Below, piece after piece: positions 28,673-45,744 of a DNA stretch of 64,000 bases. Positions within the stretch are counted from its first letter, which is position 1. Every line of letters starts with the position of its first letter. Origin of the DNA: Bdellovibrio sp. ZAP7 (lineage in GTDB: Bacteria; Bdellovibrionota; Bdellovibrionia; Bdellovibrionales; Bdellovibrionaceae). Below the pieces are notes generated by a model. It made no database searches. It saw only the letters and a program-made list of their open reading frames with translations, and was not told the origin of the DNA. The translations under genes were made by a program, and so were the position numbers. Location: contig NZ_CP030082.1 of assembly GCF_006874645.1 (NCBI RefSeq), forward strand, positions 2,914,001 through 2,978,000. The letters run 5' to 3'.

Positions 28673-30619
28673 ATGGACCAAAAGACCGAAAAGCGCAAAC
28701 TGCTGATCATCAAGTCTCATCCACAAAGTTTGGGCCCTGTTGAGGGATTTTTGAAAAACCGCGAATGGGAAATCAAAAGCACGCACAACCTCAAAGAGGC
28801 GATGGTATATCTGGTGCAAAACCAACCACAATTCGTCATGGTCAGTATAGACCATCCAAATAAGAAAGTCAGAAATCTTCCGAAAGTTTTGAGTCAGGCA
28901 TTTCCGGTTTGTGTGATTGCTTTCGCTGAACACTCTACTCCCTCGTCTGTTAAAATTCTCAACGACTGCAATTCTGGATACGCTATTTACCATCCGATCA
29001 CAGGTCCTGCCGTTGAGCGGATGGTGAATAAGTATAACAAAGATCAAATTGCCAACCCCCAAGCGGCGGCAGCCAACAGATCCTGGGATGGCAATGGCGG
29101 AAATAGTTCAGGTGTCATCGCGATCCGTGGTGGTGAAGCAGGCGGCGAAGCTTCGGCGACTTCCACACAAAACTTTTTGGCAAATTTGCTGGGTGCACTT
29201 GATAGCAGTGCAACCAGCGGCCCGCCTGCAGGCTTTGCACAAGGCACAGCCGCAGATGGAACTATGACAGCCGTTCAGCCCGGCATGGCTGGGTATATTC
29301 CTCCCACCTCTCAAGATCCGAATGCAAATGCTATCGATAGTGGCGCAGATCAAAATGGAATGAATGGTTTTACGAGTGATAGTGACCAAGACGCACAAGT
29401 CGGTGCACATGGTTTCATGGGTGGCCACCAAAACGGAATGAACAGCGCCGGTGGCAATGCAGCACAAAAGGGTTTTGGCGGTTTTAACGATGGAGCAAGT
29501 GGCAACGAATTCAATCCCAATAGTTTCGGCACAAATGGCGCAAACCGCATGGATCCAAATTTCTCTGATCCCCATGGCAGCAATGGTTTAGCCAATGGTA
29601 ATGGAATGAATCCCAGTGCTCACGGAATGAACGGCGGTTTTGGAAGCGACTTTAATCACAACAGCAGCCCTTCTGCAAACGGCGGTTCGGCAGCAAATCC
29701 GCACGCGCCCGGCTTCATGGGTGCAAATGGAAGTGCCGCCGCATCCGACACCTTGGATCCGAACGATCCAAACTATGATCCCTATGGTGACGGGGGCGAA
29801 GCTTCCTACTCTGCCAGAAAAAAGTCCGACACCATGTGGGCTCCCGTAGATGCTGATGGTAAAAATAAAAAACAACATGTCTTGAAAGAGACCGCTGATG
29901 AAGTCGCAAAAGATCCAGGCTCGCTGATCTTAAAAGGAACTCGAGAGGCGATGGACAAAGCCTGCGTGATCACGGAAAAAAAGCGCAACGTGGGCATTGC
30001 CACCAACGTCGCTTGCATTCTTGTCGAGTCCGGTCGCTTTTCGGGCTATCTGGTTGCGGCGATGGCAGAACATCTGACGATTGATATTCACTTCGTTGAA
30101 AAAATCCGCACTCGTCTGTTTAAGTTTCTATCTGAAAACGGAGAAAACTTGGAACACAACGAAACCATGCCGATCAAAATCAAACAAGTGCCTTTCGCAG
30201 CCTGGGCTGTAGAGCACGCTGAGTTTTTAAGAAAATCAGTGCACAAGGGCAACGAAGTTGCGATGGCCTTCTTTCCCCGCTCCGATCTTAAAGCGGAAAT
30301 TTCGGCTTCACCTGATGAAGAAATGGCAGCCGTCAAAATCCACGAAATGCGCACCGATGTCCCGGTTGATTTCAACCTTTACGTTCATTTGCCGCGCAAC
30401 AACCGCTATGTGCTTTATACTCCAGAGGGCGGAGTGTTTCTTTCAGAACAAAAAACTCGGCTGGTAAATCAAGGCATCACCCATCTTCACGTCTTACGCA
30501 TGGAACTTCAAAATCTGGATAAGTACCGAGCGCAGAACTATTTGAACGATAAAATCGACGAGTACCAGCAGCAGCTCGAAAAAGAGGCAGAAGATATTAA
30601 GAAACCTTTGGCCTCTTAG
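28673..30619 (+). CDS. Degenerate receiver protein with Asn/Gly/Met-rich linker
   Basis: Residues 8-120 look like a response-regulator receiver fold, but the acidic pair is missing (LIIKSHPQS) and the phospho-acceptor position is Ser58 instead of Asp. Residues about 125-380 are a low-complexity, probably disordered linker with repeated GMN and NGMN motifs. Residues about 400-648 form a conserved-looking alpha/beta domain I do not recognise, including VPVDFNLYVHLPRNNRYVLYTP. It cannot be phosphorylated in the usual way, so it may sense protein-protein contacts. It precedes the cysteine desulfurase gene and shares its direction. Confidence 0.7.
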   Translation: MDQKTEKRKLLIIKSHPQSLGPVEGFLKNREWEIKSTHNLKEAMVYLVQNQPQFVMVSIDHPNKKVRNLPKVLSQAFPVCVIAFAEHSTPSSVKILNDCNSGYAIYHPITGPAVERMVNKYNKDQIANPQAAAANRSWDGNGGNSSGVIAIRGGEAGGEASATSTQNFLANLLGALDSSATSGPPAGFAQGTAADGTMTAVQPGMAGYIPPTSQDPNANAIDSGADQNGMNGFTSDSDQDAQVGAHGFMGGHQNGMNSAGGNAAQKGFGGFNDGASGNEFNPNSFGTNGANRMDPNFSDPHGSNGLANGNGMNPSAHGMNGGFGSDFNHNSSPSANGGSAANPHAPGFMGANGSAAASDTLDPNDPNYDPYGDGGEASYSARKKSDTMWAPVDADGKNKKQHVLKETADEVAKDPGSLILKGTREAMDKACVITEKKRNVGIATNVACILVESGRFSGYLVAAMAEHLTIDIHFVEKIRTRLFKFLSENGENLEHNETMPIKIKQVPFAAWAVEHAEFLRKSVHKGNEVAMAFFPRSDLKAEISASPDEEMAAVKIHEMRTDVPVDFNLYVHLPRNNRYVLYTPEGGVFLSEQKTRLVNQGITHLHVLRMELQNLDKYRAQNYLNDKIDEYQQQLEKEAEDIKKPLAS

Positions 30620-30663
30620 GGAATCCTCTTGACCCCGCTTTGTGGCCGTTATTAGCTACTGCC

Positions 30664-31857
30664 ATGGAAAGCACTACTCAGGCTAGCTCAGCCGCTCAGA
30701 CAGCGTCCGATAAAGGACTCTATTTGGATTACAACGCCACAACACCGGTAGACCCTCAGGTTTTTGCCGCGATGGAACCGTATTTCAAAGAGTACTTTGG
30801 AAATCCATCAAGCGCCTCCCATCATTGGGGTTGGACTGCAGAAAACGGCGTGCAAAAGGCCCGTATGCAAGTGGCGTCGTTGATCGGCGCTAAGTCCTCT
30901 GAGCTGACTTTCACAGCGAGCGCAACAGAATCCAACAACTGGGTGATTTTCGGTCTGTTGGCGAAACTTCGCGAAACGAATCCAAACCAGCCCATTCATT
31001 TTATCACGAGTAATGTCGAACACAGTTCTATCGTTAAGGCGATGATGGCGGTGGAAAAGCAAGGTGTCGAAGTTGATTTCCTTCCGGTGAATCAATACGG
31101 CCAGATCGAAATGAAAACTCTTCGCCAAGCGCTCAAACCTCACACAAAACTTGTTAGCTTGATTTGGGTGAATAACGAAATCGGCAGCCTCAACCCGGTG
31201 GTTGAAGTTGCAAAGCTTTGCAAAGAAAAACAAATTCTTTTCCACACTGATGCGACACAAGCGATTGGCAAAGTGCCAGTGAATGTAACCGAGATGGGTA
31301 TCGACTTGATGTCGTTCTCCGCTCACAAAATGTATGGCCCCAAAGGCTCAGCGGCTCTTTACATCCGTGGTAAAGATCCAAAGGTTGAAATCAATCCTTT
31401 GATCTACGGTGGTGGTCAGGAAAAAGGCCTTCGCTCTGGGACTTTGAATGTTCCGGCCATTGTTGGCTTGGGCGTCGCTTCTGAAATTTGCAAAAATAAT
31501 CTGGAAGCAGAAACTGCTCGCATGACGTCTCTTCGCAATTTGCTTTGGTCGAAGCTGCAAGCAGCGACTCCAGGCATTCGCTTGAATGGACATCCGACAG
31601 AACGTTCCCCCATCAATCTAAATGTGACGTTACCCGGAATCACGGTGGAATCATTGGCGCCTAAAATTCAAAAATTGGGAATCAGCACGGGGTCAGCCTG
31701 CAGCTCCGGTTCGGTTAGCATCAGCCATGTCCTGAAAGGCATCGGAATGTCGGCAGAGGATGCTCGCTGCACGTTCCGCATTTCCCTGGGACGCTGGACC
31801 TCTGAAAACGACATCCACCGTGCTGTCGAGATCCTTCACGGCGCCATCCCAACGTAA
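30664..31857 (+). CDS. Cysteine desulfurase (IscS/NifS family)
   Basis: A 397-residue pyridoxal-phosphate enzyme with the family motifs LDYNATTPVD near the N-terminus, the cofactor lysine in SFSAHKMYGPKG, and the flexible-loop catalytic cysteine in GSACSSGS. It takes sulfur from cysteine for Fe-S cluster assembly. ATG 30664 is preferred over GTG 30640 for lack of a ribosome-binding site at either. It lies 44 bp after the degenerate receiver gene and about 110 bp before an IscA-type gene, so a small iron-sulfur group is formed. The subgroup (IscS versus NifS) was not resolved. Confidence 0.92.
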   Translation: MESTTQASSAAQTASDKGLYLDYNATTPVDPQVFAAMEPYFKEYFGNPSSASHHWGWTAENGVQKARMQVASLIGAKSSELTFTASATESNNWVIFGLLAKLRETNPNQPIHFITSNVEHSSIVKAMMAVEKQGVEVDFLPVNQYGQIEMKTLRQALKPHTKLVSLIWVNNEIGSLNPVVEVAKLCKEKQILFHTDATQAIGKVPVNVTEMGIDLMSFSAHKMYGPKGSAALYIRGKDPKVEINPLIYGGGQEKGLRSGTLNVPAIVGLGVASEICKNNLEAETARMTSLRNLLWSKLQAATPGIRLNGHPTERSPINLNVTLPGITVESLAPKIQKLGISTGSACSSGSVSISHVLKGIGMSAEDARCTFRISLGRWTSENDIHRAVEILHGAIPT

Positions 31858-31970
31858 AATATATAATATTTTCAGTATTTTAGCTCACTCATACGGGGGA
31901 TGGAATTGACCCTCCCCTGCTTACGGGCTTTGTGGTAGACTGGCTGAGAATTTATCCCGAGGAGAACCCC

Positions 31971-32297
31971 ATGATTAACATTTCCCCAGAAGCGGCAACG
32001 AAACTAGCGGCTCTTAAAAAAGATGATGGCAAAGACGAAGCTGCATTTTTGCGCGTGGAAGTGAAAAAAGGGGGTTGCTCAGGCCTCTCTTATAAAATGG
32101 ATTTCGATACAACTCCTCGTGATGGTGACAAGATCTTTGAATCCAACGGCCAAAAAATCGCTGTGGATGCGAACTCCATGTTGTACATCTTGGGTATGAC
32201 TTTGGATTTTTCTGGGGGTTTGAATGGCAAAGGTTTTGTCTTCAACAACCCCAACGCCACGAAACACTGTGGTTGCGGTTCCAGCTTTAACGTTTAA
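31971..32297 (+). CDS. IscA/HesB/ErpA-type iron-sulfur assembly protein
   Basis: A 108-residue protein with the A-type carrier layout: GGCSG with one conserved cysteine near residue 37 and a C-terminal CGCGSSF pair. Such proteins deliver Fe-S clusters to apoproteins. ATG 31971 follows GAGGAG six bases upstream, while the longer reading frame beginning at 31932 has no such support. It sits downstream of the cysteine desulfurase on the same strand. Confidence 0.93.
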   Translation: MINISPEAATKLAALKKDDGKDEAAFLRVEVKKGGCSGLSYKMDFDTTPRDGDKIFESNGQKIAVDANSMLYILGMTLDFSGGLNGKGFVFNNPNATKHCGCGSSFNV

Positions 32298-32300
32298 TAT

Positions 32301-32346
32301 ACTCACAATGACTCCATCGTGTCCGTTGGAAACGGGGTCATTCATT
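32301..32346 (+). terminator. Weak hairpin after the IscA-type gene
   Basis: AATGACTCC and GGGGTCATT pair, with a nested CCGTT/AACGG stem, but no T-run follows. It may end the desulfurase-IscA transcript or be an RNA structure in the 180-bp spacer, which otherwise shows nothing. Confidence 0.3.
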
Positions 32347-32476
32347 ACTGTGCCGCCATTTTTTAGACCTACATTTGTAGCAGGAAAAATGTGACCGGCA
32401 CTTTCTACGTCTAGAACTGTTCCACCTGCCCAATGGCAAAATAGGTTTCTTCGCCGTCCGGGATTATCATAGATCC

Positions 32477-32857
32477 ATGGCTAAAAACTTTTTAGAAATT
32501 CACAGCTTACAAAATCTCACTACGGAATTTGAGTTGATCAAAAATCTAAAGGCTCGACCTTTGGAAATTCTGGAGTACGCTGAGAAGTCTTTTACTTTTG
32601 AAGCTTCTCCCCGTATTTGCGGACTGGGAACTATCGTACATCTGGAAGGCAAATTTTATTTCGACGGCGGTTCTCACGATTTTTTAGCCACGGGTAAAGT
32701 CACTCGATGCGAAGCTTTAGATTCAGGTAAACACTCCAAGTACACTGTTGAACTTCATCGTTTTGAAAAAGGCCTTTGGGAGAATTTCCTTAACGCTAAC
32801 ATGCAATCGCAATTGAACACCGACATGTTGTTCAGAGCCATGCGGGAGCTTGATTAA
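32477..32857 (+). CDS. Small cytoplasmic protein, possibly PilZ-like
   Basis: The 126-residue product has no signal or membrane helix. Its second half (RICGLGTIVHLEG...FYFDGGSHDFLATGKVTRC...) has beta strands and spacing that recall PilZ c-di-GMP-binding domains, but the classic RxxxR and D/NxSxxG motifs are not intact. It ends directly before the start of the next gene, a receiver-TPR protein (stop and ATG are adjacent), so the two are clearly one operon and probably act together. Family assignment is a guess. Confidence 0.5.
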   Translation: MAKNFLEIHSLQNLTTEFELIKNLKARPLEILEYAEKSFTFEASPRICGLGTIVHLEGKFYFDGGSHDFLATGKVTRCEALDSGKHSKYTVELHRFEKGLWENFLNANMQSQLNTDMLFRAMRELD

Positions 32858-34114
32858 ATGAAAAATCTGACAGCACTTATCGTCGACAGCTCTCCGTCGT
32901 ATACCAATCTTATTACTGCGGCACTTCTAGAGATCGGCTTGCTTCAAGAAAATATTTTTACAACGAAACGTTATGTCGGCGCTGTGGAATTTCTCACGGA
33001 TACCAAGCCGCAACTTTTGATCACAGAATTTCAAGTCGATGCCAAATTTGGTTTGGAACTTGTGACCATGCATACGGCAAACAGTCCTAATAATATTTCG
33101 ATCATCATGACTCACAATAACTCCAGCTCTTCCATTGCGGAAGCTGCAGAAGAACTAGTCGACGACTATATCGTAAAGCCTTTCCAAAGCGGCATGCTCG
33201 CAAATCGCCTGCGCCAACTGATTGATCGCAAGTTGAATCCCAGCGATTACATCAAAGCGATTCGCGAAGGCAAACAGGCTCTTTTGGATGGCCAATTGAA
33301 AGACGCTGAACACAAGTTCTCGGTAGCCCTACAACATCAGGAAAAGCCCACACTTGCACACTATTATCTGGGTTATACGAAATTCAAAGAAACCGAATAT
33401 CAGTTCGCCACGGATGAGTTTGCGAAGGGCTTAACTTTGCAACCACTTCACTATCGTTGCTTAACCGGTAAATTCGATACTTTCTATGAGCAAAAAGATT
33501 TCGCCAACGCCTATACGGTGGCGAATACCATCATTGAAAACTATCCGATCGGACCTAAGCGTTTGGGACAGCTTTTCATTTCTGCTGTTTTCTCGGGGAA
33601 GTTGGATGAAGTGCCTCACTACTTCCAACTTTTTGCGCAGCTGGATCATAAAACTCCAGAACTTCGCCATGTTTTTTCAGCTGCACTGTTCACTGCCGGT
33701 CGCTCGAACTTAAATAACAAAGCCCTTACCAAAGCGGTGGAGTGTTTTGAATTGGGTGTTCAGGTAGTGGGAGCGGATTCTGAATATATCAGTAAAATTG
33801 TGAAGGTCTTATTGCGTGGAGATGCTCAGGCTGTCAATCAGGCGGCACGCTTTTTACAGCAGTTTCCTTCCAGCAAAGTAGGCAGTAAAGAATATGAAAA
33901 TCTTTACTTCCTGTTTAACTGTAAAACATTGCCGCTTTCCAAAGTTATCGATCAGGGTCGCAAGATGGCAGCACAAAATCGTATGGATGCTGAATCCTAT
34001 GAAACATTCATTCGTCTGTTGATCAGCGACAATAAAACCGTCTTGGCAGAGGATATTTCCGAAAGATATCAGCGGGCATTTCCGAATCAAACGCCATCTC
34101 GCGAGAAGGCTTAA
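32858..34114 (+). CDS. Receiver-like domain with TPR repeats; acceptor Asp replaced by Glu
   Basis: Residues 1-125 form a response-regulator receiver fold (ALIVDSSPS, IIMTHNNSS, DDYIVKPF) in which the phospho-acceptor position carries Glu57 (LLITEFQVD) instead of Asp. Glu there often mimics the phosphorylated state. Residues about 135-410 are helical TPR-type repeats likely to bind a partner. The combination suggests a constitutively active scaffold or regulator. Encoded directly after the 126-residue protein (32477-32857) and convergent with the hydrolase gene. Confidence 0.75.
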   Translation: MKNLTALIVDSSPSYTNLITAALLEIGLLQENIFTTKRYVGAVEFLTDTKPQLLITEFQVDAKFGLELVTMHTANSPNNISIIMTHNNSSSSIAEAAEELVDDYIVKPFQSGMLANRLRQLIDRKLNPSDYIKAIREGKQALLDGQLKDAEHKFSVALQHQEKPTLAHYYLGYTKFKETEYQFATDEFAKGLTLQPLHYRCLTGKFDTFYEQKDFANAYTVANTIIENYPIGPKRLGQLFISAVFSGKLDEVPHYFQLFAQLDHKTPELRHVFSAALFTAGRSNLNNKALTKAVECFELGVQVVGADSEYISKIVKVLLRGDAQAVNQAARFLQQFPSSKVGSKEYENLYFLFNCKTLPLSKVIDQGRKMAAQNRMDAESYETFIRLLISDNKTVLAEDISERYQRAFPNQTPSREKA

Positions 34115-34939
34115 CTATTTCGCGGCTCTTTCAAAGGGAGCTGCGACATGCAAGAATTCACCTAAATGCTGAGCAACGACTTCCGGTTGAGATTTAATCG
34201 CCAAGTGCCCTGCCCCTTGCAAAACAATCATGTCTTCACAACCCAAATGCTGAGCGAACTTTTTGTAAGCATCTTGATTAAACAGCAGATCACTTTCGTC
34301 AAAAATTAAACGGCAGTCCCCGCGATACTTGAAAAGTTTCTTATTCCAAAACTGCCAGTCCTCAGAGCGCAGGATCCAGGAGAAATGATGAATCATGTGA
34401 GCTACAAATTGCAGCTTACGTCCTTTGAGGTGCTCGACAGACACAGCCCCTTCGGATCTTTCGTCTCTGAAAATCTGTGCGGCTCGTTTTAGGAAACTCG
34501 CTCCCATAGGTGTGGAAAGCATCAGATAGATACTTTTCAGACTCAAAGGAATCGAGAAAAAAAATCTTAGCTCTTTAGGCAAAAAGTTTTTCACCGGATC
34601 TGTGACCATAGGATTGATCAAAGCCATCTTATGCACCAAGTGCGGATGCTGAGTAGCCAGTCCCCAGCTTAAAGCGCCCCCGTAACTTAAACCAGCCAGA
34701 TGCACGCGCTCATTCGGGAAATGCTCCTGAATGAATCGCGCCAGTACTTCCACCTGTACGGTGAAAAGCAGCTTATCACTGCTCATATAGACATGACTTA
34801 AATTTGGGATGATTACGCGATATTGAGATTCCAGTTGAGAGGCCACCGTCTCCCAATGATGAACGCTTCCTCCATAACCATGAAGAAGAATAAGGATAGG
34901 CCCTTGCCCGCGTTCTCTGAAAGTAATCTTGTGAGACAT
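34115..34939 (-). CDS. Alpha/beta hydrolase
   Basis: The 274-residue protein has the nucleophile elbow GLSYGGALS, the oxyanion motif LLHGYGGSVHHW, an acidic residue in LIFDESDLLF and the catalytic His in GAGHLA. These are classic alpha/beta hydrolase (esterase/lipase) features; no signal peptide is present. Its stop directly abuts the stop of the convergent receiver-TPR gene. Substrate is unknown. Confidence 0.85.
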   Translation of the reverse strand: MSHKITFRERGQGPILILLHGYGGSVHHWETVASQLESQYRVIIPNLSHVYMSSDKLLFTVQVEVLARFIQEHFPNERVHLAGLSYGGALSWGLATQHPHLVHKMALINPMVTDPVKNFLPKELRFFFSIPLSLKSIYLMLSTPMGASFLKRAAQIFRDERSEGAVSVEHLKGRKLQFVAHMIHHFSWILRSEDWQFWNKKLFKYRGDCRLIFDESDLLFNQDAYKKFAQHLGCEDMIVLQGAGHLAIKSQPEVVAQHLGEFLHVAAPFERAAK

Positions 34940-35034
34940 TCTAGAATCTTATCGGCTTCCATCAAAAGTCATGCAACTGGACCAAATCCCAGTTAGTTAC
35001 CAAATGGTGAAGAAACTCGACCCCAGAAGTTGAA

Positions 35035-35856
35035 CTACTGAGGTTTGGGTTTGTTCGCTTGCTGTTGGTTTTGCTGCTTTTGCTGATTCTGATTTTGCGG
35101 GCGAGATTGCTGCTGTCCTTGATTAGGATTCTGCTTTGCCTGATTGTGTTGGCGGTTCTGATTTTGGTTCTGACCGCCACCTTGTTTTGGCTTTTGCTGA
35201 TTGTGCTGCTGCTTAGGTTGGTTTTGACCACCACCCTGTTTCGCCTGCTGTTGACCCTTTTGCTGCTGACCACCACCTTGTTTTTGGTGTTGGTGTTGCT
35301 TTTGTTTTTGTTGGTTCTGATTTTGTTGCGGGCGATTCTGCTGACGTTGTTGATTAGGTTGCTGTTGTTTCGCCTGTTGCGGAGCTTGCGCCTCTTCTTG
35401 CGATTTTTCAGCTGCTAAGTCGCCACCTGCGGAAGCAGAAACATTTTGCGCATTCGCGGCGGCCTCTTCCACTTTTGCATCCAACAACATCGTGTCGTTC
35501 ACTGCTTTGGATTCCATTTGTTTGCTGGTACGGAAGCCTCTGATTTTCTTAGTTTGATTTTCTGCGCGCTCAACTTGTTCCGTCAAATCCACAGTTACGT
35601 CACCGAAGCAACGAACCTGGCAGCTTAAACGACGGCCGTCGATAAAGTAGCTGGTTCCGATCAGGCTCAATTCCGCTTTACCCGGCGGCAGCACATTGTT
35701 GTCGCCCTCTTTGATACGCACACGGCATTCCGCACAGCTCGGAACACCCTTACAGATAGAGCGGATCTCAAGATGATTTTCCGTCGCAATCTGCAAAAGG
35801 GACTTATCTGGAGTACCTTCGACTTCAATATTTTGCGGAAGAAATTTAATTTTCAT
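35035..35856 (-). CDS. Adrenodoxin-type [2Fe-2S] ferredoxin with long Gln/Asn-rich tail
   Basis: Residues 1-90 form a ferredoxin with cysteines Cys35, Cys41, Cys44 and Cys79 in the C-x5-C-x2-C spacing of adrenodoxin/Isc-type ferredoxins. After about residue 125 the chain becomes Gln/Asn/Lys/Gly-rich with KQGGGQ and QNQ repeats to the end, about 130 residues, probably disordered. ATG 35856 with GAGGA upstream is preferred over a start 27 bp earlier. The gene lies downstream of tyrS with a repeat-bearing spacer between. The tail is unusual for a soluble ferredoxin. Confidence 0.85.
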   Translation of the reverse strand: MKIKFLPQNIEVEGTPDKSLLQIATENHLEIRSICKGVPSCAECRVRIKEGDNNVLPPGKAELSLIGTSYFIDGRRLSCQVRCFGDVTVDLTEQVERAENQTKKIRGFRTSKQMESKAVNDTMLLDAKVEEAAANAQNVSASAGGDLAAEKSQEEAQAPQQAKQQQPNQQRQQNRPQQNQNQQKQKQHQHQKQGGGQQQKGQQQAKQGGGQNQPKQQHNQQKPKQGGGQNQNQNRQHNQAKQNPNQGQQQSRPQNQNQQKQQNQQQANKPKPQ

Positions 35857-35871
35857 ACTCGAATCCTCAAT

Positions 35872-35884
35872 GGTGCCAGGCACC
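35872..35884. repeat. GGTGCCAGGCACC palindrome
   Basis: A perfect 6-bp-armed palindrome, GGTGCC-A-GGCACC, followed by four T on the plus strand. It lies 16 bp upstream of the ferredoxin start. The same core forms the long hairpin at 22668-22732, so it is one of a dispersed family. Confidence 0.7.
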
Positions 35885-35908
35885 TTTTGCTAAACACACC
35901 GCATCCCC

Positions 35909-35928
35909 AAAAGGTACGGCGTACCTTT
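35909..35928 (-). terminator. Short hairpin at the tyrS stop codon
   Basis: AAAGGTAC, loop, GTACCTTT form an 8-bp stem that overlaps the tyrS stop and is followed on the minus strand by TTTTGGGG. Probable weak terminator. Confidence 0.45.
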
Positions 35929-37162
35929 AGACCAATTTCACTTTCGCGAATTTAGTCTTGCTGCCCTTCACGACTTTGCCGTCGATCATTGCCGGCTGCA
36001 GTTTCATTTTACCATCGGTGACTTTTTGACCGTCGATTTGCACGGCGCCACCTTGAACCATACGATTGCCTTCACTGTTCGAGGCCGCAAAGTTCAACTT
36101 AACTAACAACTGAGCGACGCCTAGGCCCTCAGCCGGAATATCATTTTTGCTGATCTCAACCGTTGGAATATCGTCAGGCAAACCCTTGTCGACAAAGATA
36201 CGGTTGAATTCGTCTTCCGCGGCCTGAGCTGCCTCAGCCGAGTGGAAACGTTTGATGATGAATTTTGCCAACTCCACTTTCACAGTGCGTGGATGTTTCT
36301 TTTTGCTGGCAACATCTTGTCTTAACTGTTCAAGTTCCGCAGCCGTAATGTCCGTCAGTAGTTCATACCAACGGTACATCAGATCATCTGAAATCTTCAT
36401 CGTCTTACCGAACATGTCTTTCGGAGTATCGACTACAGATATATAGTTATCCAAAGACTTGGACATTTTGTTAACGCCATCAACCCCTTCCAGGATCGGC
36501 ATAGTCAGGATACATTGTGGTTCTTGGCCATAAGCAGATTGCATCGAGCGACCGACCAAAAGATTGAACTTTTGATCCGTACCCCCCAGCTCCACGTCAG
36601 CTTTCAAAGCCACAGAGTCATAACCTTGAGTCAATGGATACAAGAACTCATGAATCGCAATCGGAGTGCCAGCGCGATAACGCTTCGTAAAATCGTCACG
36701 CTCAAGCATTTGCGCCACAGTATATTGTGCCGCCATTTTTATGAACTCCCCCGGGGTCATCTTGCCAATCCAAGACGAGTTGTACACGATTTCGGTTTTG
36801 TTCGGATCTAGGATTTTAAAGATCTGCTTCGCATACGTACGACCGTTTTCCTCGATCTCGTCACGTGAAAGAACCGGACGAGTTGAGCTCTTCCCTGTCG
36901 GGTCACCAATCGTCGCCGTGAAATCACCAATCAAGAAAATAATATGATGGCCCAGATCCTGGAACGTTTTAAGTTTATTGATAACAACAGTATGACCGAT
37001 ATGAATATCTGGACGAGTCGGATCCGCCCCCAGCTTGATACGAAGCGGAGTGTTCGTTTCCTTAGAGCGCTTCAATTTCTTAAGCATCTCTTCGTCATTA
37101 ATAAACTCAGCAACGCCGAATTTAATTCTCTCTAACTGTTCTTTAGGATCCAAAAAACTCAT
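35927..37162 (-). CDS. tyrS: Tyrosyl-tRNA synthetase
   Basis: This 411-residue class I synthetase has the HIGH motif (HIGHTVV, about residue 54) and KMSKS (KMSKSLDN, about residue 233), a tyrosine-site segment with [18 protein letters not shown], and a C-terminal S4-like RNA-binding domain from about 335 ([21 protein letters not shown]). It is of the TyrRZ type seen in many proteobacteria. Its ATG overlaps the stop of the RNase Y gene, so the two are translated together. Confidence 0.96.
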
Positions 37163-38727
37163 TATCTTGCGTGCTCCACACTGCGAGTCTCACGAACAAC
37201 TGTCACTTTGATTTGGCCAGCCTGAGGAACTTCGCGTTCGATCTTACGAGCGATATCGCGAGATAACATCACGGCCTGGTCATCAGTTACTTTTGCAGAT
37301 TCAACCAAGACGCGAACGTCTTTACCGGCTTGAAGAGCCAAAGTTTTCAAGACGCCATCAAAGCTGTTACCGATGGATTCAAGGTCTTCCAAACGGTGGA
37401 TAAAGGAATCCATCTGCGGACGACGAGCACCAGGGCGCGCGCTAGACAAGATGTAAGCCGCGTGAACAATCCAAGCCAGGATAGAATGAGGTTTTTCCTC
37501 TTCATCATGAGCGCGGATCGCGTGACATACGTCTTCAGATTCAGAATATTTTTTAGCGGCTTCCGCACCAACAAGTGCATAGCTGCCTTCTGCAGTGTGA
37601 TCGATAGCTTTACCGATATTGTGCAAAAGACCCGCACGTCGTGCGAGTTTCACACTCACGCCCAACTCTCCTGCAAGCAAGCCCGCGATGTTGGCAACTT
37701 CAAGTGCTTGGTTCAAAGCATTTTGACCTTGGTAATTACGGTATTTCAAACCGCCAATGATTTTAATCAATTCTGGGTGCATGTTGGGAATACCCAGCTC
37801 CAACACGTGGCGCTCACCCTCTTCTTTGATGGCTTTCATCAATTCGTTACGTTGTTTTTCAACGACTTCTTCAATACGCGCTGGATGCACACGGCCGTCT
37901 TCCATCAATTTCTCGATCGTTCTGCGAGCTAGCTCACGGCGAACTGGATCGAAACCAGAGATAACCACGGCTTCCGGAGTATCGTCGACGATTAAGTCCA
38001 CACCACAGTGAGCTTCCAAAGTTCTGATGTTACGTCCTTCACGACCGATGATTTTACCTTTCATCTCGTCGTTGGGAAGTGCCAAAACGCTGACAGTTCT
38101 TTCGGAAGTGAACTCCGATGCAAAACGCGACAACGCTGTTGCCAAGATACGCTTTGCTTTAACTTCAGATTCTTTTTGAGCTTGCTCTTCGATTTGGGTG
38201 ATTTTTTTAGAAGCTTCGATTTTCGCTTCGTCTTCAATGGCAGCCAACAATTGACGTTTAGCTTCGTCCTGGGACATACCCGCAACGGATTCCAATTTCT
38301 GTTTTAGTTCGCCAATTTGAGATTCGCCTTTTTTCTCAAGTTCTTTGATACGGTTTTCAGAGATCGCGATTTTTTCTTCGCGGTCTTTCATCGTGTTCAA
38401 ATAACGCTCATTTTCTTCCATTTTTTGTTTGAATTGCTGTTCGATTTCTTTCAAACGGCGATCCAATTGAGCTTCTTTGTTTTTCAACGTGGAATTTTGC
38501 TTATGAATGTCAGCTTCCACATTCTTACGGGCGCGACCTTCAAAATCCTTCGCACGAGTCTCAGCGTCTTTTTTTAGTTTCGCTGCTTCAGACTTGGCTT
38601 TGTTAACGATTCGCTCTGCCTCAACGCGTGCAGATTTTTTGCTGTTATTGTCCTGAATGCGTTTCACCATGAAAACAGCGACACCGCCCAAAATTAAACA
38701 GATAATGGCTGTGATTAAAATTTCCAT
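37162..38727 (-). CDS. rny: RNase Y homologue with degenerate HD domain
   Basis: The 521-residue protein has RNase Y architecture: N-terminal membrane helix, long coiled coil (residues 30-190), KH domain ([11 protein letters not shown] near 228) and HD domain. Compared with Bacillus RNase Y, metal-site residues are changed: the first His is Gln340 (GQNALNQ), the HD pair reads His369-Asn370 (LLHNIGKA), GSH is GSY383, SHHGD is AHDEE, and AADAL is AAYIL with Tyr425. The active site is therefore probably lost, while membrane, coiled-coil and KH parts are intact. It may act as an RNA-binding scaffold. It overlaps tyrS by one base. Confidence 0.9.
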
Positions 38728-38749
38728 TTCTTCCTTTTCTCCTCAAGCT

Positions 38750-39313
38750 CTAGTGAAGCTCGTACTGCTGGCAAACGATCAAACCCGACTCCGTGATGAT
38801 GTAATCCATCTTTTCGTCGTGGGCTTCCATGGGTAGTGTCTGTTCTGAAATTTGAAAATCAAAACAAACCCCCACCTTGATTCCTTTAAAGTGAGCAAGG
38901 GTTTTGTCATAAAAACCTTTGCCCTTACCAAGGCGGTTGCCATTCTTATTAAAAACTAATCCGGGAATCAGCAGGCCGTGAATGCCATTGAGATCTATGA
39001 TAGCGGAGTTGGGATCAGGCTCCAAAACGCCAAAGGCGCCCTGGCTGAAACCTGATGCAAAACAAAACTCAAGTTCGTTTCCTTTTGTACGGGGAAACGC
39101 CCAGTCGATATCGTGGATTTGAAAAATCTCATCCACGCTGGCTTCTTGAGCGAGGGCGCGATAGGCACCCCAACATCCGTTCTGCTTAGACATAAAGTCC
39201 TGCAGAAATACATTCAACTGCTGCTGGTTTTGAACAAGACCTTGCGCAAACTCTTGGGCGCAAAGAGATTTATAAAAGGAACGACATTCCTGTTTAGAGC
39301 TCCAAGAGGGCAT
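38750..39313 (-). CDS. 5-formyltetrahydrofolate cyclo-ligase
   Basis: The 187-residue protein contains the ATP- and folate-binding signature GKGKGFYDKTLAHF and a C-terminal strand ending in IITESGLIVC, typical of the MTHFS (YgfA) family, which converts 5-formyl-THF to 5,10-methenyl-THF. ATG 39313 is favoured because GGAG lies five bases upstream, while an in-frame GTG at 39319 overlaps it. It lies 27 bp downstream of zapA, an arrangement conserved in proteobacteria although the 6S RNA usually between them is absent. Confidence 0.88.
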   Translation of the reverse strand: MPSWSSKQECRSFYKSLCAQEFAQGLVQNQQQLNVFLQDFMSKQNGCWGAYRALAQEASVDEIFQIHDIDWAFPRTKGNELEFCFASGFSQGAFGVLEPDPNSAIIDLNGIHGLLIPGLVFNKNGNRLGKGKGFYDKTLAHFKGIKVGVCFDFQISEQTLPMEAHDEKMDYIITESGLIVCQQYELH

Positions 39314-39340
39314 GGGCACTCCAAGAGAGTTACATCAAAG

Positions 39341-39649
39341 TTAGTTGTTCAAAACCTTGTTGTTCTTGGAGTTTTCAAGTTCCAAAGATAGCTGCATCGT
39401 TTTTTCCTCGAGCTTATCGAGTTCACGCTGCGCTTTTCTTTTCAAAAGGATGAGTTCTTCCGCGAGATTCATCGCTGTCAACACAGCGGCATTCTGGAAG
39501 GAACCGTTTTTCGTAACGGCCATTGCTTGATTCATTTTGTTATTAACAAAGTCGACGAGTTCCTGAACTGTGGCATCGTCGTGTGAGGATCTAAGTTTGT
39601 ACGGGACTCCTGCAATGAGGAAATTAAAGTTCTTTTTCTCAGCAGTCAC
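39341..39649 (-). CDS. zapA: Cell division protein ZapA
   Basis: A 102-residue protein with an N-terminal beta region (FLIAGVPYKLRSSHDD) followed by a long C-terminal helix, the ZapA layout that cross-links FtsZ filaments at the division site. Start is GTG 39649, with AGGAG at proper distance. It precedes the formyl-THF cyclo-ligase gene, as in many proteobacteria, which supports the name. Confidence 0.85.
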   Translation of the reverse strand: MTAEKKNFNFLIAGVPYKLRSSHDDATVQELVDFVNNKMNQAMAVTKNGSFQNAAVLTAMNLAEELILLKRKAQRELDKLEEKTMQLSLELENSKNNKVLNN

Positions 39650-39756
39650 CGTGTCTCCTCTTTCAATCGCTAATGGGCTAAACCTTTTAAAACTCTAGAA
39701 AAATCCTAGAACAACACTAAAAAGTATAGCTGTAACGAGAAGCGGTATTCAACCAA

Positions 39757-40365
39757 TTATTTCTTAGTGCAAGTGCAAATAATCCCCAGCTCAGACTCGC
39801 TACTGCAAGACAGGCTGCGCTTTCGCGCCGACCCCTCGAGATTGAACTCCGTCACCTCGTGGAAATTGCGTTTGTAAGTAGAGCTCACTCCATTTAGCTT
39901 CGTGTCAAGATAGGAGTAGATGTCACTTCTGATCGTGGAGTTTAAGAGGAAACCGTTGATAATCTCCTGCTTAGGGTTGGTGCGTTGATTTTTCGTGAGT
40001 GCTATATCTGTAAGCACCCCATCTGCCTGCACCTTTTGAACCGTCAGCTCAATCTTTGGCTTTTTGATCGAGGTGGTTTCATTTTTTAAGATCAGATTAA
40101 ACTCTTGTTTGTCCGCATCCAGATAGTTCACTTTTCTTTGACGCAACTGCGAGCGAACCGTCACGAACTTCTCATCCGCCAGCTCCTTAAGCTTCGTCAA
40201 ATTAACTTTGAACGCCAAACTGTCATCTTTAAGTTCTGGGAAACACTTCAGCACATTTTCGTACGACACCGAAACCGGCGTCGCGGTTGGAGGCGGCATT
40301 TTAGTATTCGGCTGAGCGCTGGCGACCAACGGTGCGAGAAAAATAAAAGGGACGAAGCTTTTCAT
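39757..40365 (-). CDS. Secreted protein of unknown function
   Basis: The 202-residue product begins with a signal peptide (cleavage after ASA) and has a Pro-rich segment near residue 25. Four cysteines cluster at the C-terminus (SCSSESELGIICTCTKK) and one lies near residue 40. No family was recognised. It stands alone between the zapA group and the L,D-transpeptidase gene. Confidence 0.65.
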   Translation of the reverse strand: MKSFVPFIFLAPLVASAQPNTKMPPPTATPVSVSYENVLKCFPELKDDSLAFKVNLTKLKELADEKFVTVRSQLRQRKVNYLDADKQEFNLILKNETTSIKKPKIELTVQKVQADGVLTDIALTKNQRTNPKQEIINGFLLNSTIRSDIYSYLDTKLNGVSSTYKRNFHEVTEFNLEGSARKRSLSCSSESELGIICTCTKK

Positions 40366-40426
40366 CCCTTTATCGAAGCATAGAATTTGTTTTGAGCCAA
40401 TTTTATTTCATTCCGGTGAGGTCGGA

Positions 40427-42220
40427 TTAAAAACTTGAGTTGTTCGCCGGGCTGTTTAAGGCGTCCAGCAAGATGGGATCCTGACCGTAATCATCATCAG
40501 CGAAACCTACTTCTCCGTTACTCTTGGCGAAAACAGTCAAATAGTGCAAATACACTGTGATCGGTTTCGCAAGTGAAACGACTTTCGTTGCGCGAGACTC
40601 AGACTCTGTCTGTGACGGTACGATTTTCAGAATTTCGTCCATGGAGTATCCAGGTTTATCTTTTAGTAAGTAAGCAGCAAGATCCAAGGGTCTTTGCAGT
40701 CTTACGCAACCAGAACTCGCATGGCGGTTCTCATCATTAAATAGATCTCTTTCATTTGTATCATGCAGGTAAATGCTAAAGCTGTTTCCATCCAGTGGGA
40801 ACTTAACCACGCCCAAGGCATTATCGTAACCTTGTTTTTGCACGATAATATAGCGGGCACTTTGCAAGTCCACTTCGGTAATTTTAGTCCAATCAGGATT
40901 TTGAGCAGGGACGTAATTTACGATTTTACCGTTCTTGTATTCTGCCTGCAGCAAATACATTTTGTGCTTATCCAGGTAAGTCGGATCCTTTTGAAGAATC
41001 GGAAGCTTATCCTTGATAGCGATCGATGAAGGCACCGTCCAGGTCGGATTAAACTCGACACGAGAGATTCTACGAATCATTAAAGGAGTTTTTCTAACAT
41101 CACGGCCATTGATTGTCCTGAATTGCAATTTCACGGCTTCCGGAGCCCATTTTTTCTCTTTTTCTGACCAAAGACTATCATCGCGTAAATTGAACTTTGT
41201 CATGGCGACATTCACGAAAATATAACGTGTATCCATTTTGCGTGGAATCCAGCGGTATCTTTCCATATTCAGTTCAATCTGTTTGATTCTTTGCTCCAGT
41301 GGCACATTTAAGTGATTCAACACCTTCGAAAAGTTCGCGCCGATTTTTCCATCGACTTTCAAACCGCTGTTCAATTGAAACGCTCTAAGGTTTTTATCAA
41401 GCTCATCATCAAACACCGGGGACTGATTCGAAATACGGTAACCCAGTTGACTCAATCTTTCCTTAACATCAGCAACGGCAGCGTCCTGAATCCCTTTTGA
41501 AAGCTCTTTCCCCGCAGGCTTGATGACCTTCCAGGATTTATTTGCAAGACCTCGAAGATTTGCCAACGCCAATTTCAAATGTCGATATTCGGGAATAACT
41601 GGGTGAAGTTTCTCAGTTTCTTCAATGAGCAGTTTTGCGGGACCTCTGGCGACCAATTTCAATCGCAACATAAAGTCCTTCATTTCAACTTGGGCCATTT
41701 CGATATTTGGATCAAATTCCTTTGGGTTAAATCTGCCTTTGTAGATGTGATGGGCATATCTTAAATAAGCCTCCGACATTTTAACATCAAGCTCAGCCAA
41801 CTCCTGCACGCTCACATTGCTACCCTCAAAAATCGGGTCCCAGACATGAGCCCAATAGACATCCCAAAGACCATGAGCAGGCGCTTCCTGTAGCAATTTT
41901 CTAAGAGCCACACCCTTAGCATTAGGCTGAAGCGAATTCATATCGATCCACACCGGCTGATAAGGCTCATTCATTCTTTGCTTGGTGTCTTTGTCAATTT
42001 TTACGAAACTATAAAACTCATTCAATTTCTTTGTATTCAACAAAACCTGATAGTTCGCGGCTGCCGGATTGCTGACAGCATCCTGAATCAATCGGGTCAT
42101 CTGTGAGGATTGAGCGTCAGGCACCAGCGCTTGTGCATTACTGAACAACGGAAACAGCAAAAAGATGCCGATGATGATCAGTAGGACTTCGTTGCTGCTG
42201 ATAAAATCTTTCATTTTCAT
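40427..42220 (-). CDS. L,D-transpeptidase, YcbB/LdtD-like, with peptidoglycan-binding domain
   Basis: The 597-residue protein has an N-terminal membrane anchor, a large scaffold region with a PG_binding_1 domain (around KERLSQLGYRI...FQLNSGLKVDGKIG), and a YkuD catalytic domain with HASSGCVRL, holding the nucleophile cysteine. YcbB-type enzymes make 3-3 cross-links in peptidoglycan or modify it. ATG 42220 is chosen because GAGG lies five bases upstream; in-frame starts at 42235 and 42295 are less supported. In predatory bacteria such enzymes remodel predator or prey wall. Confidence 0.88.
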   Translation of the reverse strand: MKMKDFISSNEVLLIIIGIFLLFPLFSNAQALVPDAQSSQMTRLIQDAVSNPAAANYQVLLNTKKLNEFYSFVKIDKDTKQRMNEPYQPVWIDMNSLQPNAKGVALRKLLQEAPAHGLWDVYWAHVWDPIFEGSNVSVQELAELDVKMSEAYLRYAHHIYKGRFNPKEFDPNIEMAQVEMKDFMLRLKLVARGPAKLLIEETEKLHPVIPEYRHLKLALANLRGLANKSWKVIKPAGKELSKGIQDAAVADVKERLSQLGYRISNQSPVFDDELDKNLRAFQLNSGLKVDGKIGANFSKVLNHLNVPLEQRIKQIELNMERYRWIPRKMDTRYIFVNVAMTKFNLRDDSLWSEKEKKWAPEAVKLQFRTINGRDVRKTPLMIRRISRVEFNPTWTVPSSIAIKDKLPILQKDPTYLDKHKMYLLQAEYKNGKIVNYVPAQNPDWTKITEVDLQSARYIIVQKQGYDNALGVVKFPLDGNSFSIYLHDTNERDLFNDENRHASSGCVRLQRPLDLAAYLLKDKPGYSMDEILKIVPSQTESESRATKVVSLAKPITVYLHYLTVFAKSNGEVGFADDDYGQDPILLDALNSPANNSSF

Positions 42221-42854
42221 AGGAACCTCACTCATATCAGTAACTTCCAACTTCTGTGCCACCCGAGCGGGGTTATATTCGCTATGGGCTCGCATATGGC
42301 CGGAGGTAACAAATACTGTCAGCCAGTGACACCTGACGTGACTGTCTCATTCTGAGACGTGGGGCTTGACCCTTCCCGGCGCGTCGGCATATTCCTCAGA
42401 TAGAATCCTTGTTTACCGCCACCGTGGCGGTAAAATATCACTCGCTTCAAAAAAAATGCGTCGACAATTCATCGCGTTTTTTCGCGGTAATCCTCATCCT
42501 AATCCAGTCACAATCATCCTCTTATTTCTCACCGTGATCGTGCTCTCAAATTGCTGTTCTCGCGCTACTTCAATTTGCTAGAAAATTCTGCTAATTGTGA
42601 CTATGAATTTCCGGATCTATTTCCAAAGATTAATGCGTCAATTTTAAATAAATTATTGACGGAAAATTTGAATCTCTACGATTCCCCTTGTGTCTCGAAT
42701 GGTGTTTGAATTTTCTAATAAATGATTTTTTAGTTTTATCTCGAGGAAGAGCCTCCAACGCGTTTTATGAGAGAATTCGCGCCGTGTTGTTTACGCCGCT
42801 GAAAATGCTTTGAAAAACCTTGTGGTATGTTGCTTTCAAATTCGGGAGGTTTGT
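42221..42854. other. 634-bp gap upstream of the HNH gene
   Basis: No convincing gene is seen. It holds the start-proximal leader of the L,D-transpeptidase gene, a perfect 23-bp palindrome (42412-42434), and an AT-rich zone before the HNH gene that contains TTGACG near 42656 but no well-spaced -10. A 71-codon frame at 42366-42581 lacks ribosome-binding support and is dismissed. Confidence 0.4.
42412..42434. repeat. 23-bp palindrome, core also inside the HNH gene
   Basis: TTTACCGCCAC-C-GTGGCGGTAAA is a perfect palindrome with one central base. The inner 15 bp (CCGCCACCGTGGCGG) recurs at 43519-43533 inside the HNH endonuclease gene. It may be a binding or recognition site. Confidence 0.65.
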
Positions 42855-43769
42855 GTGAATTTGAAGTTTCTTAGTGAGATTGAGCTTGATGAAAGAATTA
42901 AAACTTTGGCTCAGCGAGAGCGACATCTTTTGCATGAAGTGCTTTTAACGATTAAAGAAATTGATTCTCGCAAAACTTATTTGGAGCTGGGATTTGGCAG
43001 CCTTTTTGACTATTTAGTAAAGGGCATCGGATATTCTGAAGGAAGCGCACAACGCCGCATCGATGCGACCCGCTTGATTCGCGAAATTCCTGCTGTCGCT
43101 GACAAGATACAAAGTGGTGAATTGAAATTTAATCAAATTTCCTTGGTGCAAAGAGCTGCGCGCGAAATCTTAAAAAATCAATCCGTCAAAGTCACTGCAG
43201 AACAAAAACTTCAGGTATTTGAAGATCTTTGCGGAAAGAGCCATTCGGAATCTCAATTTAAAGTGGCAGCATTTTTTGAATTGCCTGTGGTGCAGTCTGC
43301 TCAACAAAAAGTTCAGGCTGATGAAAGTGTTCGAGTTGAGTTTACACTTTCCAAAGAAGCTTTTGAAAAAATCAAATACGCCCAGGAGCTTTTGTCGCAT
43401 GCGGTGACGACCCAGGATTTGGGTCAGTTTTTGGCATACCTTTCGGAAAAGGTCATCCGTCAGAAAACGGGGTTTAAAAACCAAAACCGGAAAAGCTCTA
43501 CTTCTGATGGCATTTCTACCGCCACCGTGGCGGCAAGAAAGACACCGGCACTTAAGAATGTAAAGCAATTAAGACATCAGCAGCAGTGCTGCCAATATAT
43601 TGATCCGGATACTGGCCGACGTTGCGAAAGCAAATGGCTTCCACAAGTCGATCACAAGCAAAGTCGTTGGGCTGGAGGCAATCATCAGTTGGAGAATTTG
43701 CAGATACTTTGTGCTGGTCACAATAGGCTCAAATACAGAAAAGAGAACGGTGTCAAATATTCGTCATAG
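42855..43769 (+). CDS. HNH endonuclease-domain protein (DUF222/13E12-like)
   Basis: The 304-residue protein has a helical N-terminal part with a swap-like segment (GSAQRRIDATRLIREIP) and a C-terminal HNH nuclease motif around CESKWLPQVDHKQSRWAGGNHQLENLQILCAGHN. Proteins of this layout are often multi-copy in Bdellovibrio-like genomes and may be selfish or phase-variable nucleases. GTG 42855 is preceded by GGGAGG. A palindrome copy lies inside the gene, and a GACA tetranucleotide repeat follows directly after its stop. Confidence 0.78.
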   Translation: MNLKFLSEIELDERIKTLAQRERHLLHEVLLTIKEIDSRKTYLELGFGSLFDYLVKGIGYSEGSAQRRIDATRLIREIPAVADKIQSGELKFNQISLVQRAAREILKNQSVKVTAEQKLQVFEDLCGKSHSESQFKVAAFFELPVVQSAQQKVQADESVRVEFTLSKEAFEKIKYAQELLSHAVTTQDLGQFLAYLSEKVIRQKTGFKNQNRKSSTSDGISTATVAARKTPALKNVKQLRHQQQCCQYIDPDTGRRCESKWLPQVDHKQSRWAGGNHQLENLQILCAGHNRLKYRKENGVKYSS

Positions 43770-43792
43770 AGACAGACAGACAGACAGACAGA
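43769..43792. repeat. Tetranucleotide tract (GACA)5
   Basis: Five perfect GACA units at 43771-43790 begin one base after the HNH gene's stop codon. Slippage here would not change the protein. It is the only simple tandem repeat noted in the window. Confidence 0.8.
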
Positions 43793-43850
43793 AGAAAGGG
43801 TGATTGCGGAAAACGCAAAACTTGGCGGAAGTGCGTCGTTTAAAAATAGT

Positions 43851-43879
43851 CTGCCGCAGGGTTATTACGTCTGCGGCAG
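43851..43879 (-). terminator. Rho-independent terminator of the secreted NlpC/P60-like gene
   Basis: CTGCCGCAG, an 11-nt loop and CTGCGGCAG are perfect 9-bp arms. On the minus strand they are followed by ACTATTTTT. The hairpin lies 11 bp past the stop of the gene at 43891-45618. Confidence 0.8.
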
Positions 43880-43890
43880 TGAATAAGAAC

Positions 43891-45618
43891 TTAGTACGCG
43901 GATAGACGACGAGTGCCCGTTTGTAAGAAACGAACGATGTCCACGTCAGGGGGATTGGCGATGCCGACTCCTGGTTTTGGACCGGTTAACTCGCCCAGCG
44001 AGTAATCCATGCGGGTGTCGTAAGTACGCTCGTACTGATTGCGCAGCCAGCGTTCGGCGTTGTACCAGGCGCGTTTGTTTTGGTTGTCGGGGCAGGATGC
44101 TAACTCTGACGATGATTTAGCTCCCCAGCGCAACTCTGCGCAGTGGTAGGGGTCGAAGCTCATGTCGAAGACTCTTTGGCGAGCTTGTTCTAAATTCATG
44201 GTCACAGCTTGGCCGCGACTGTTTGTATATGAGAACTGACATGCACCTGCATCGCGATTGTAAATCGCTAGCAAATCGCCTCGCAGATTATTTCCGCGAT
44301 ACACGATCGTTGGATCACCCACCTGATAGCGTTGAACCATGCTGCGAGTTTGTGCGAGCAAGTTCATGAACGAAACTTTCAGGCGCGCATCACGGGATGG
44401 CGAAGCGAACTGTTCCCACTCCCCTGTTGTACCGAAAATATTTTGTGGAAGACGGTCCGGATGAGGTTTATTTTGCACGCCCGAACGCAAAGCCACGTCG
44501 ACCGCTTGCACACGATCTTTTAAATTCACGCACAGGTCAGCCACCATGCTTTGCATGTCTTGCAACGGATCGATACGCAATTCACCGTTCGCCAGCATGA
44601 TCCGCAGGTATTCATAGTAATCCACCGCGCGACCATTATAGATGAATTGCCCCTTTGACCACTGTCCATCAGGATCAGGACGGTTTCCATAGAATTGCTC
44701 TAAGCTGTAGTATGGCAATGTGTTGTTCTTAGCTCCCAACACTCGTCCACCGATATAGGCTCCGCTGGAATCTTTTTTTGCCCCCGTCAAAGTCAAAGGA
44801 CGGAAATTTTTAAAGCCAGCACCTTGATAAGGATTGCTGCGCTCGAATTTTGGATTGTACATGCCCGATGTCAAAGTATTGTCAGGATGGGAATCGATAT
44901 AATAAATCTGCCCGTCCGTCGTCACTTTATAAACGACCGCCACGTGACCATTTGGATCATAGATAACAGTACCTGGGCGAATACTGAACCGAGTCAGCTT
45001 CACCGGATAGAAATCAGAGAACATATTACCGTCCTCGGTTCCCATCATACGAAACGTCGCCGACAAAGTCGTATTCGTGATGGTTCCGTTCAACAATGAA
45101 ACTGCATTTGGATAGCGCGAGGCCAAAATCCCAAATCCATAATCGAAATCTTCAATGTTATAGATAAAGGCTTTACGATTTCGACCATTTCCCGCAACCA
45201 CATCGAAACGCCCCGTCACGTAATTTCCAAAAGGTGTGTACCGAATGTCACCGTTATTTCCCGCCACAGGGCGAGCGTTGACTCTGCTTGCAACAGACAT
45301 CGGCAACGCATTTTTCCACGCGTAATAAGAGCGCAGATAATATGGAAGATCCGCGCAATCCGCATAGTACGCGAGACCTGAGGGGTCCGAAGAATAGTAC
45401 GGATTTGCATTACTAGTCAGACATCCTTTGACGGTGTCACACTGGCGATTCTCGACGGCAGCACCTATGCGCGCGATAAAGTTCGAGAATCCCTCTTCGT
45501 CCTGTGTTGACCACTGAGTTTTCGTTACTCTCCAATCCCGGGTAGCGTAAGGACTCCACTGCGCTTGACTCATCGCAGACATAAAAAACATCGCACCAAG
45601 GCCCAAAATCCATTTCAT
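43891..45618 (-). CDS. Secreted cysteine hydrolase-like protein (NlpC/P60-like)
   Basis: The 575-residue protein has a signal peptide (to MSQAQ). A Cys near residue 88 in YADCADLPYYLR, a His in DPNGHVAVVYKV and a following YYIDSHPD give the Cys-His-polar order of NlpC/P60-type amidases or peptidases. The remainder is Tyr/Arg-rich and not recognised. It is divergent from an L,D-transpeptidase gene with a 126-bp shared promoter region, so a cell-wall function is likely. It could be a predation-related wall hydrolase; that is inference. Confidence 0.6.
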   Translation of the reverse strand: MKWILGLGAMFFMSAMSQAQWSPYATRDWRVTKTQWSTQDEEGFSNFIARIGAAVENRQCDTVKGCLTSNANPYYSSDPSGLAYYADCADLPYYLRSYYAWKNALPMSVASRVNARPVAGNNGDIRYTPFGNYVTGRFDVVAGNGRNRKAFIYNIEDFDYGFGILASRYPNAVSLLNGTITNTTLSATFRMMGTEDGNMFSDFYPVKLTRFSIRPGTVIYDPNGHVAVVYKVTTDGQIYYIDSHPDNTLTSGMYNPKFERSNPYQGAGFKNFRPLTLTGAKKDSSGAYIGGRVLGAKNNTLPYYSLEQFYGNRPDPDGQWSKGQFIYNGRAVDYYEYLRIMLANGELRIDPLQDMQSMVADLCVNLKDRVQAVDVALRSGVQNKPHPDRLPQNIFGTTGEWEQFASPSRDARLKVSFMNLLAQTRSMVQRYQVGDPTIVYRGNNLRGDLLAIYNRDAGACQFSYTNSRGQAVTMNLEQARQRVFDMSFDPYHCAELRWGAKSSSELASCPDNQNKRAWYNAERWLRNQYERTYDTRMDYSLGELTGPKPGVGIANPPDVDIVRFLQTGTRRLSAY

Positions 45619-45685
45619 GAAACCTCCAGTTCGTGCCGCGGGGCACTTTTACAAATTCGAATTTTTTAGTCGCCCACAATCCACT

Positions 45686-45715: not shown

Positions 45716-45744
45716 TTATGCAATTGATCTCGGGGGAACAATCC

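What the first reader, a model, noticed from the sequence alone, without database searches (positions are those of the whole stretch)
37162..38727. RNase Y homologue that has lost its HD active site
Seen, by comparison with the well-known Bacillus RNase Y sequence: first metal His becomes Gln340, HD becomes HN (Asn370), GSH becomes GSY383, the second His of SHHGD becomes Asp408 and the AADAL Asp becomes Tyr425. KH domain and anchor are intact. Mutating the HD pair abolishes RNase Y activity in Bacillus. Inference: an RNA-binding scaffold or a new activity.
Basis: partly seen in the sequence, partly recalled or inferred. Interest (0 to 1): 0.75.

Follow-up and report, generated by a model that had tools for sequence, protein, structure and literature searches.

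The report
Split RNase Y pair, dead-HD partner
In Bdellovibrio and its relatives the RNA-cutting enzyme RNase Y exists as two genes that have lost opposite halves: this one keeps the RNA-binding domain but has a dead cutting site, while a second gene far away keeps the cutting site but has lost the RNA-binding motif, which suggests the two work as a team.

Summary
The gene at 37162-38727 (-) is a full-length RNase Y homologue with HD-site changes H>Q340, HD>HN370, GSH>GSY383, HH>HD408 and AAD>AAY425. The same genome carries a second RNase Y (contig 2399009-2400589) with an intact HD site but a destroyed KH GxxG loop. The pattern holds across the order. In 42 sequenced 'A' copies (this gene's clade) the last metal Asp is always lost and GxxG always kept. 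In 43 'B' copies all HD ligands are kept and GxxG is lost in 41. Thirteen single-copy relatives keep both. A sits at the ancestral zapA-FCL-rny-tyrS locus. Both genes are under strong purifying selection in every domain, with reciprocal emphasis. Two copies are present in 84 of 88 near-complete genomes of the clade. Best reading: RNase Y was split by complementary degeneration into a membrane-anchored RNA-binding pseudonuclease (A) and a KH-less catalytic subunit (B), most likely acting as a hetero-oligomer. Pseudonuclease status and complementarity are well supported from sequence; heteromer formation is inferred. A distant family shows a partial parallel. No earlier report was found.

The parts
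37162..38727 (-). rny-A: RNase Y homologue with dead HD site (521 aa, ATG start)
38101..38727 (-). Membrane anchor plus ~190-aa coiled coil (aa 1-209), inferred dimerisation arm
   Evidence: Pfam RNase_Y_N; one TM, coil length 190 here vs 191 in partner B; helices 2-149 and 153-211 in the model
37900..38100 (-). KH domain (aa 210-276), intact
   Evidence: Pfam KH_1 35 bits; GxxG kept in 42/42 A copies; KH fold like exosome Rrp4-type proteins, Z 12.8
38035..38046 (-). GxxG loop G228-R-E-G231
37432..37737 (-). HD domain (aa 331-432), fold kept, active site lost
   Evidence: Pfam HD 45 bits; blocks of pLDDT mostly 77-93; VIA-align Z up to 13 to HD domains
37708..37710 (-). Q340: first metal His lost
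37618..37620 (-). N370: Asp of the HD pair lost (codon AAT)
37579..37581 (-). Y383: His of GSH lost
37504..37506 (-). D408: second His of AHH lost
37453..37455 (-). Y425: last metal Asp lost (lost in 42/42 A copies)
37165..37431 (-). C-terminal region (aa 433-521); in B. subtilis modelled as part of the dimer interface
   Evidence: PMC9775385; MamM-CTD-like fold, Z ~10.7
35927..37162 (-). tyrS, abuts the rny-A stop codon; part of the ancestral syntenic block (name from sequence recognition)
38750..39319 (-). 5-formyltetrahydrofolate cyclo-ligase-like gene (FCL), upstream syntenic neighbour; name from sequence recognition, not tested
39341..39649 (-). zapA-like gene, upstream syntenic neighbour; name from sequence recognition, not tested

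Best explanation
RNase Y in this clade has been split between two genes by reciprocal degeneration. The gene in the window (A, at the ancestral rny locus) is a pseudonuclease: membrane anchor, coiled coil, intact KH domain, and an HD fold without a usable metal site. The partner (B, G000:C1:2399009-2400589, outside the window) keeps the anchor, coil and a complete HD site but has lost the KH GxxG loop. [quoted passage not shown] Shown from sequence: the residues, the complementarity, near-strict coinheritance, and purifying selection on all domains. Inferred: catalytic death of A, loss of RNA binding by B's KH, and A-B assembly.
For: Second gene found with intact HD. Residue census: metal residues H340/H369/D370/D425 complete in 13/13 single-copy, 43/43 B and 0/42 A; both GxxG glycines in 13/13 single-copy, 42/42 A and 2/43 B. 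Pfam KH_1 passes its cut-off in all A and single-copy proteins tested and in none of five B; HD passes in all ten. dN/dS in the genus: A KH 0.010, HD 0.024; B KH 0.023, HD 0.013, so no domain is decaying and the emphasis is reciprocal. Order-wide identity: A KH 77%, HD 58%; B KH 40%, HD 70%; single-copy KH 73%, HD 78%. A and B are each one clade (98 and 100; 94/97 and 100/100); A sits at the conserved zapA-FCL-rny-tyrS locus like the single copies. 84 of 88 genomes at least 90% complete in f1, f2 and f9 (minus single-copy f2 lineages) have two copies (counted). Both keep a TM helix and coils of near-equal length. RNase Y is at least a dimer, and an inactive B. subtilis mutant is dominant negative, explained by its authors by mixed oligomers or substrate competition (PMC10303841); coil and C-terminal region form the modelled dimer interface (PMC9775385). 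HD mutations almost abolish activity in B. subtilis, and H374A is inactive in H. pylori. A distant family (f20) has a parallel pair, one copy HHDN and one HHDD.
Against: No direct evidence of A-B contact: A and B are unlinked, and no complex could be modelled here. Rate covariation A-B (rho 0.54) is no higher than RNase E/G with PNPase (0.55), so it suggests at most a shared pathway. Three near-complete genomes show A without B (G254, G273, G298); G254 is 99% complete in 10 contigs, so A may sometimes work alone. In 26 of 42 A copies only the last Asp is changed to Asn, so residual activity in those is not excluded. B's KH domain could bind RNA by another surface.
Confidence: 0.58

Rival explanations
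1. Independent specialists: B is a homo-oligomeric, KH-independent nuclease, and A is a separate homo-oligomeric membrane RNA-binding or degradosome scaffold that does not assemble with B.
For: Genes unlinked; A found without B in G254, G273 and G298; rate covariation not specific to A-B; RNase E/G is also present.
Against: Does not by itself explain why loss of KH and loss of HD coincide in paired copies across the clade, or why both keep matching coil lengths.
Confidence: 0.25
2. A is an inhibitory or regulatory pseudosubunit: it titrates B or substrates, as the dominant-negative HD mutant does in B. subtilis.
For: Dominant negative effect of inactive RNase Y in B. subtilis.
Against: B lacks a recognisable KH domain, so purely negative action leaves open what recognises the RNA; A sits at the ancestral rny locus and is coinherited as strictly as B.
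Confidence: 0.12
3. A retains or has gained another activity at the altered HD site (other metal, other substrate).
For: H369 kept in 42/42 and H407 in 38/42 A copies; HD domain still under purifying selection; Bd1817, a Bdellovibrio HD-GYP protein with Asn for the last Asp, still binds two irons though inactive on c-di-GMP (PMC8177086).
Against: The site is not conserved towards any new consensus: A copies carry at least 12 different combinations at the four ligands, which looks like relaxed active-site constraint.
Confidence: 0.05

Closest known systems
RNase Y (B. subtilis YmdA; TIGR03319)
   Same: Domain order anchor-coil-KH-HD-C-terminal region; full-length family match; ancestral locus in this order.
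   Different: A lacks the metal site; B lacks the KH GxxG. Canonical RNase Y carries both in one chain.
RNase J1/J2 (Firmicutes)
   Same: Paralogous RNase pair forming heterotetramers with activities unlike the single enzymes (PMC6759994).
   Different: Different fold and activity; the passages read do not describe reciprocal loss of two different domains.
HD domain of bacterial GlyRS (beta subunit)
   Same: Among the best structural matches to A's HD domain (Z 12.7-13.3); an HD fold inside an RNA-binding enzyme rather than a hydrolase (own knowledge).
   Different: No close kinship shown (13-20% identity); a shared fold shows no function.
Bd1817, inactive HD-GYP protein of Bdellovibrio
   Same: Asn in place of the last metal Asp, as in 29 of 42 A copies, with no c-di-GMP hydrolysis.
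   Different: Different family; still binds two irons.

Membership tests
RNase Y family (sequence family TIGR03319) | Full-length match above curated cut-off | tested here: met
   599 bits vs 454, 2-514/514
RNase Y family (sequence family TIGR03319) | N-terminal TM anchor and coiled coil | tested here: met
   RNase_Y_N 102 bits; TM and 190-aa coil
RNase Y family (sequence family TIGR03319) | KH domain with GxxG | tested here: met
   KH_1 35 bits; GREG at 228-231
RNase Y (active enzyme) | HD metal residues H..HD..D | tested here: not met
   Q340, H369, N370, Y425: three of four lost
RNase Y (active enzyme) | Endoribonuclease activity | not testable with these tools
   Needs biochemistry
Split RNase Y pair (proposed here) | Complementary partner in the same genome | tested here: met
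   Partner B, HHDD with degraded KH
Split RNase Y pair (proposed here) | Coinheritance of the two halves | tested here: met
   84/88 near-complete genomes with two copies, 39 pairs read in full; exceptions G254, G273, G298, and G203 with B cut at a contig end
Split RNase Y pair (proposed here) | Physical hetero-oligomer | not testable with these tools
   Rate covariation inconclusive; no complex prediction available

The most novel reading that the evidence does not exclude
An obligate heteromeric RNase Y in which RNA capture and cleavage reside in different subunits, produced by reciprocal domain degeneration in a lineage that includes predatory bacteria, with a similar loss begun independently in at least one other family (f20) of the same phylum.
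Probability: 0.5. Interest if true: 0.85.

Novelty: new variant of a known kind. Interest (0 to 1): 0.73.

Why it matters
RNase Y is a main decay-initiating nuclease in many bacteria, yet no solved structure turned up here by sequence, and the roles of its KH domain and dimer are unclear. Evolution appears to have separated the two functions onto two chains and kept them apart across an order. That gives a natural separation-of-function system: it predicts that one KH and one HD per dimer suffice and that cleavage can act in trans within the dimer. It also shows that family models call a probably dead protein 'ribonuclease Y'.

Tried and rejected
(1) Pseudogene or sequencing error: rejected by conservation in the genus and order and dN/dS of 0.010-0.035 in every domain of A. 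(2) A first rate-covariation run with three controls gave A-B rho 0.64; a run with two more controls used mis-picked PNPase frames; corrected, A-B is 0.54, level with RNase E/G-PNPase, so it is not used as evidence for contact. (3) Origin of B: the trees place B outside the single-copy plus A group on a long branch; the AU test of A+B as one clade gives p 0.04, borderline with long branches, so recent duplication versus older duplication or transfer is undecided. (4) A 6S or other RNA in the locus: no Rfam match in 28000-46000. (5) Solved RNase Y by sequence: none at E 0.1 except a weak KH hit. (7) Literature: searches on RNase Y with Bdellovibrio, paralogues, inactive copies and 'two RNase Y' gave no report of such a pair; the Bdellovibrio Tn-seq main text does not mention ribonucleases.

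Full report
OBSERVATION. The ORF at 37162-38727 (-) encodes 521 aa. It is a full-length member of TIGR03319, ribonuclease Y (599 bits, cut-off 454), with Pfam RNase_Y_N, KH_1 and HD matches. H369 and H407 remain. The KH GxxG is intact (G228-R-E-G231).

A SECOND GENE. A search of the window's own genome (one contig, 4.12 Mb) found a second RNase Y at 2399009-2400589 (+), 406 bits, below the curated cut-off. Its HD site is complete (QNQYFHC, MLHDIGK, GGH, AHHFDE, AADAVS), but the segment matching IIGREGRNI reads LFVDPAGANI: the GxxG loop is gone. I call the window gene A and this one B. The genome also has one RNase E/G and no RNase J match above cut-off; RNase E/G and PNPase are present in all 30 relatives tested.

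ORDER-WIDE PATTERN. I fetched and read 42 A, 43 B and 13 single-copy RNase Y sequences from the same order. Single-copy families carry everything: H340-H369-D370-D425 and GxxG in 13/13. In A copies GxxG is kept in 42/42 and the last Asp is lost in 42/42 (29 Asn, 6 Tyr, 3 Phe, 2 His, 1 Ser, 1 Cys); 15 have lost further ligands in many different combinations. In B copies all four metal residues are kept in 43/43 and both glycines of GxxG in only 2/43. Pfam agrees: KH_1 passes in the A and single-copy proteins tested and in none of five B, while HD passes in all ten. The window species is one of the most degraded A forms (three of four ligands lost).

HISTORY. A and B each form one clade (98 and 100; 94/97 and 100/100). 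A is nested among the single-copy proteins, and A and single copies share the block zapA-FCL-rny-tyrS-ferredoxin, complete or nearly so in almost every locus read, whereas B lies elsewhere with variable neighbours. So the copy that lost catalysis is the one in the ancestral place. B is on a long branch outside A plus singles; whether it is a fast-evolving duplicate or an older or foreign copy is not settled (AU p 0.04). Of 88 genomes at least 90% complete in the two-copy clade, 84 have two matches; G203 has B cut at a contig end, and G254, G273 and G298 show A only (counted by hand, checked). No near-complete genome showed B without A. Only 39 A-B pairs were read in full; for the rest the two-copy state, not the residues, is known.

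SELECTION. Within the genus dN/dS is 0.010 (KH) and 0.024 (HD) for A and 0.023 (KH) and 0.013 (HD) for B (close-species set; dS is high at about 0.6-1.1, so values are approximate). Neither dead domain is decaying freely; each protein protects its working domain most. The same reversal is seen in identities across the order. The dead HD of A still folds as an HD domain in the model (mean pLDDT 80), with best matches to HD domains of GlyRS (Z 13.3, rmsd 2.8, 120 aligned), 2pq7 and YhaM.

MECHANISM. B. subtilis RNase Y is dimeric; [quoted passage not shown] HD mutations almost abolish activity, and an inactive mutant is dominant negative, for which the authors propose mixed oligomers or substrate competition (PMC10303841). 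A and B both keep one membrane helix and coils of about 190 residues. The most economical explanation is that a homodimer with two KH and two HD became a heterodimer in which A binds RNA and B cuts it, after which the redundant KH and HD decayed in opposite subunits. Assembly is inferred. Rate covariation does not prove it: A-B 0.54 against 0.55 for RNase E/G-PNPase.

RECURRENCE. In the distant family f20 of the same phylum, one copy is HHDN with KH intact (L007, L009) and the other is HHDD with GxxG kept (L202, L203). This looks like the first step of the same process, on a separate branch for the dead copy. A protein of family f18 (L196) is also HHDN, but its genome is 78% complete and no partner was seen.

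JUDGEMENT. I found no report of it in the held library, which lacks most subscription papers.

Noticed in passing
window 35035-35883 (-): Ferredoxin-like gene next to tyrS carries a long Q/N/K-rich low-complexity tail (71% Q, N or K in the last 100 residues). Orthologues in the same block have tails ranging from none to R/G/N-rich; a tail beside the RNase Y locus might suggest an RNA-related role.
   Followed up: partly
L007, L009 with L202, L203 (family f20): Possible independent, earlier-stage RNase Y split: one copy has lost the last HD Asp, the other keeps HD and GxxG but changes the residue before the second Gly.
   Followed up: partly
L201/L205 (G029:C42:9277-10792): Single canonical-looking RNase Y broken into two frames between the first metal His and the HD pair; assembly error or real frameshift not resolved.
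   Followed up: no
L197-L200 (family f15): RNase Y-like proteins that match the family model only from about position 167-181 on, with intact KH-like and HD motifs: possibly forms without the usual anchor and coil.
   Followed up: no
L196 (G013, family f18): Only RNase Y found in a 78% complete genome has the last HD Asp changed to Asn; partner may be missing from the assembly.
   Followed up: no
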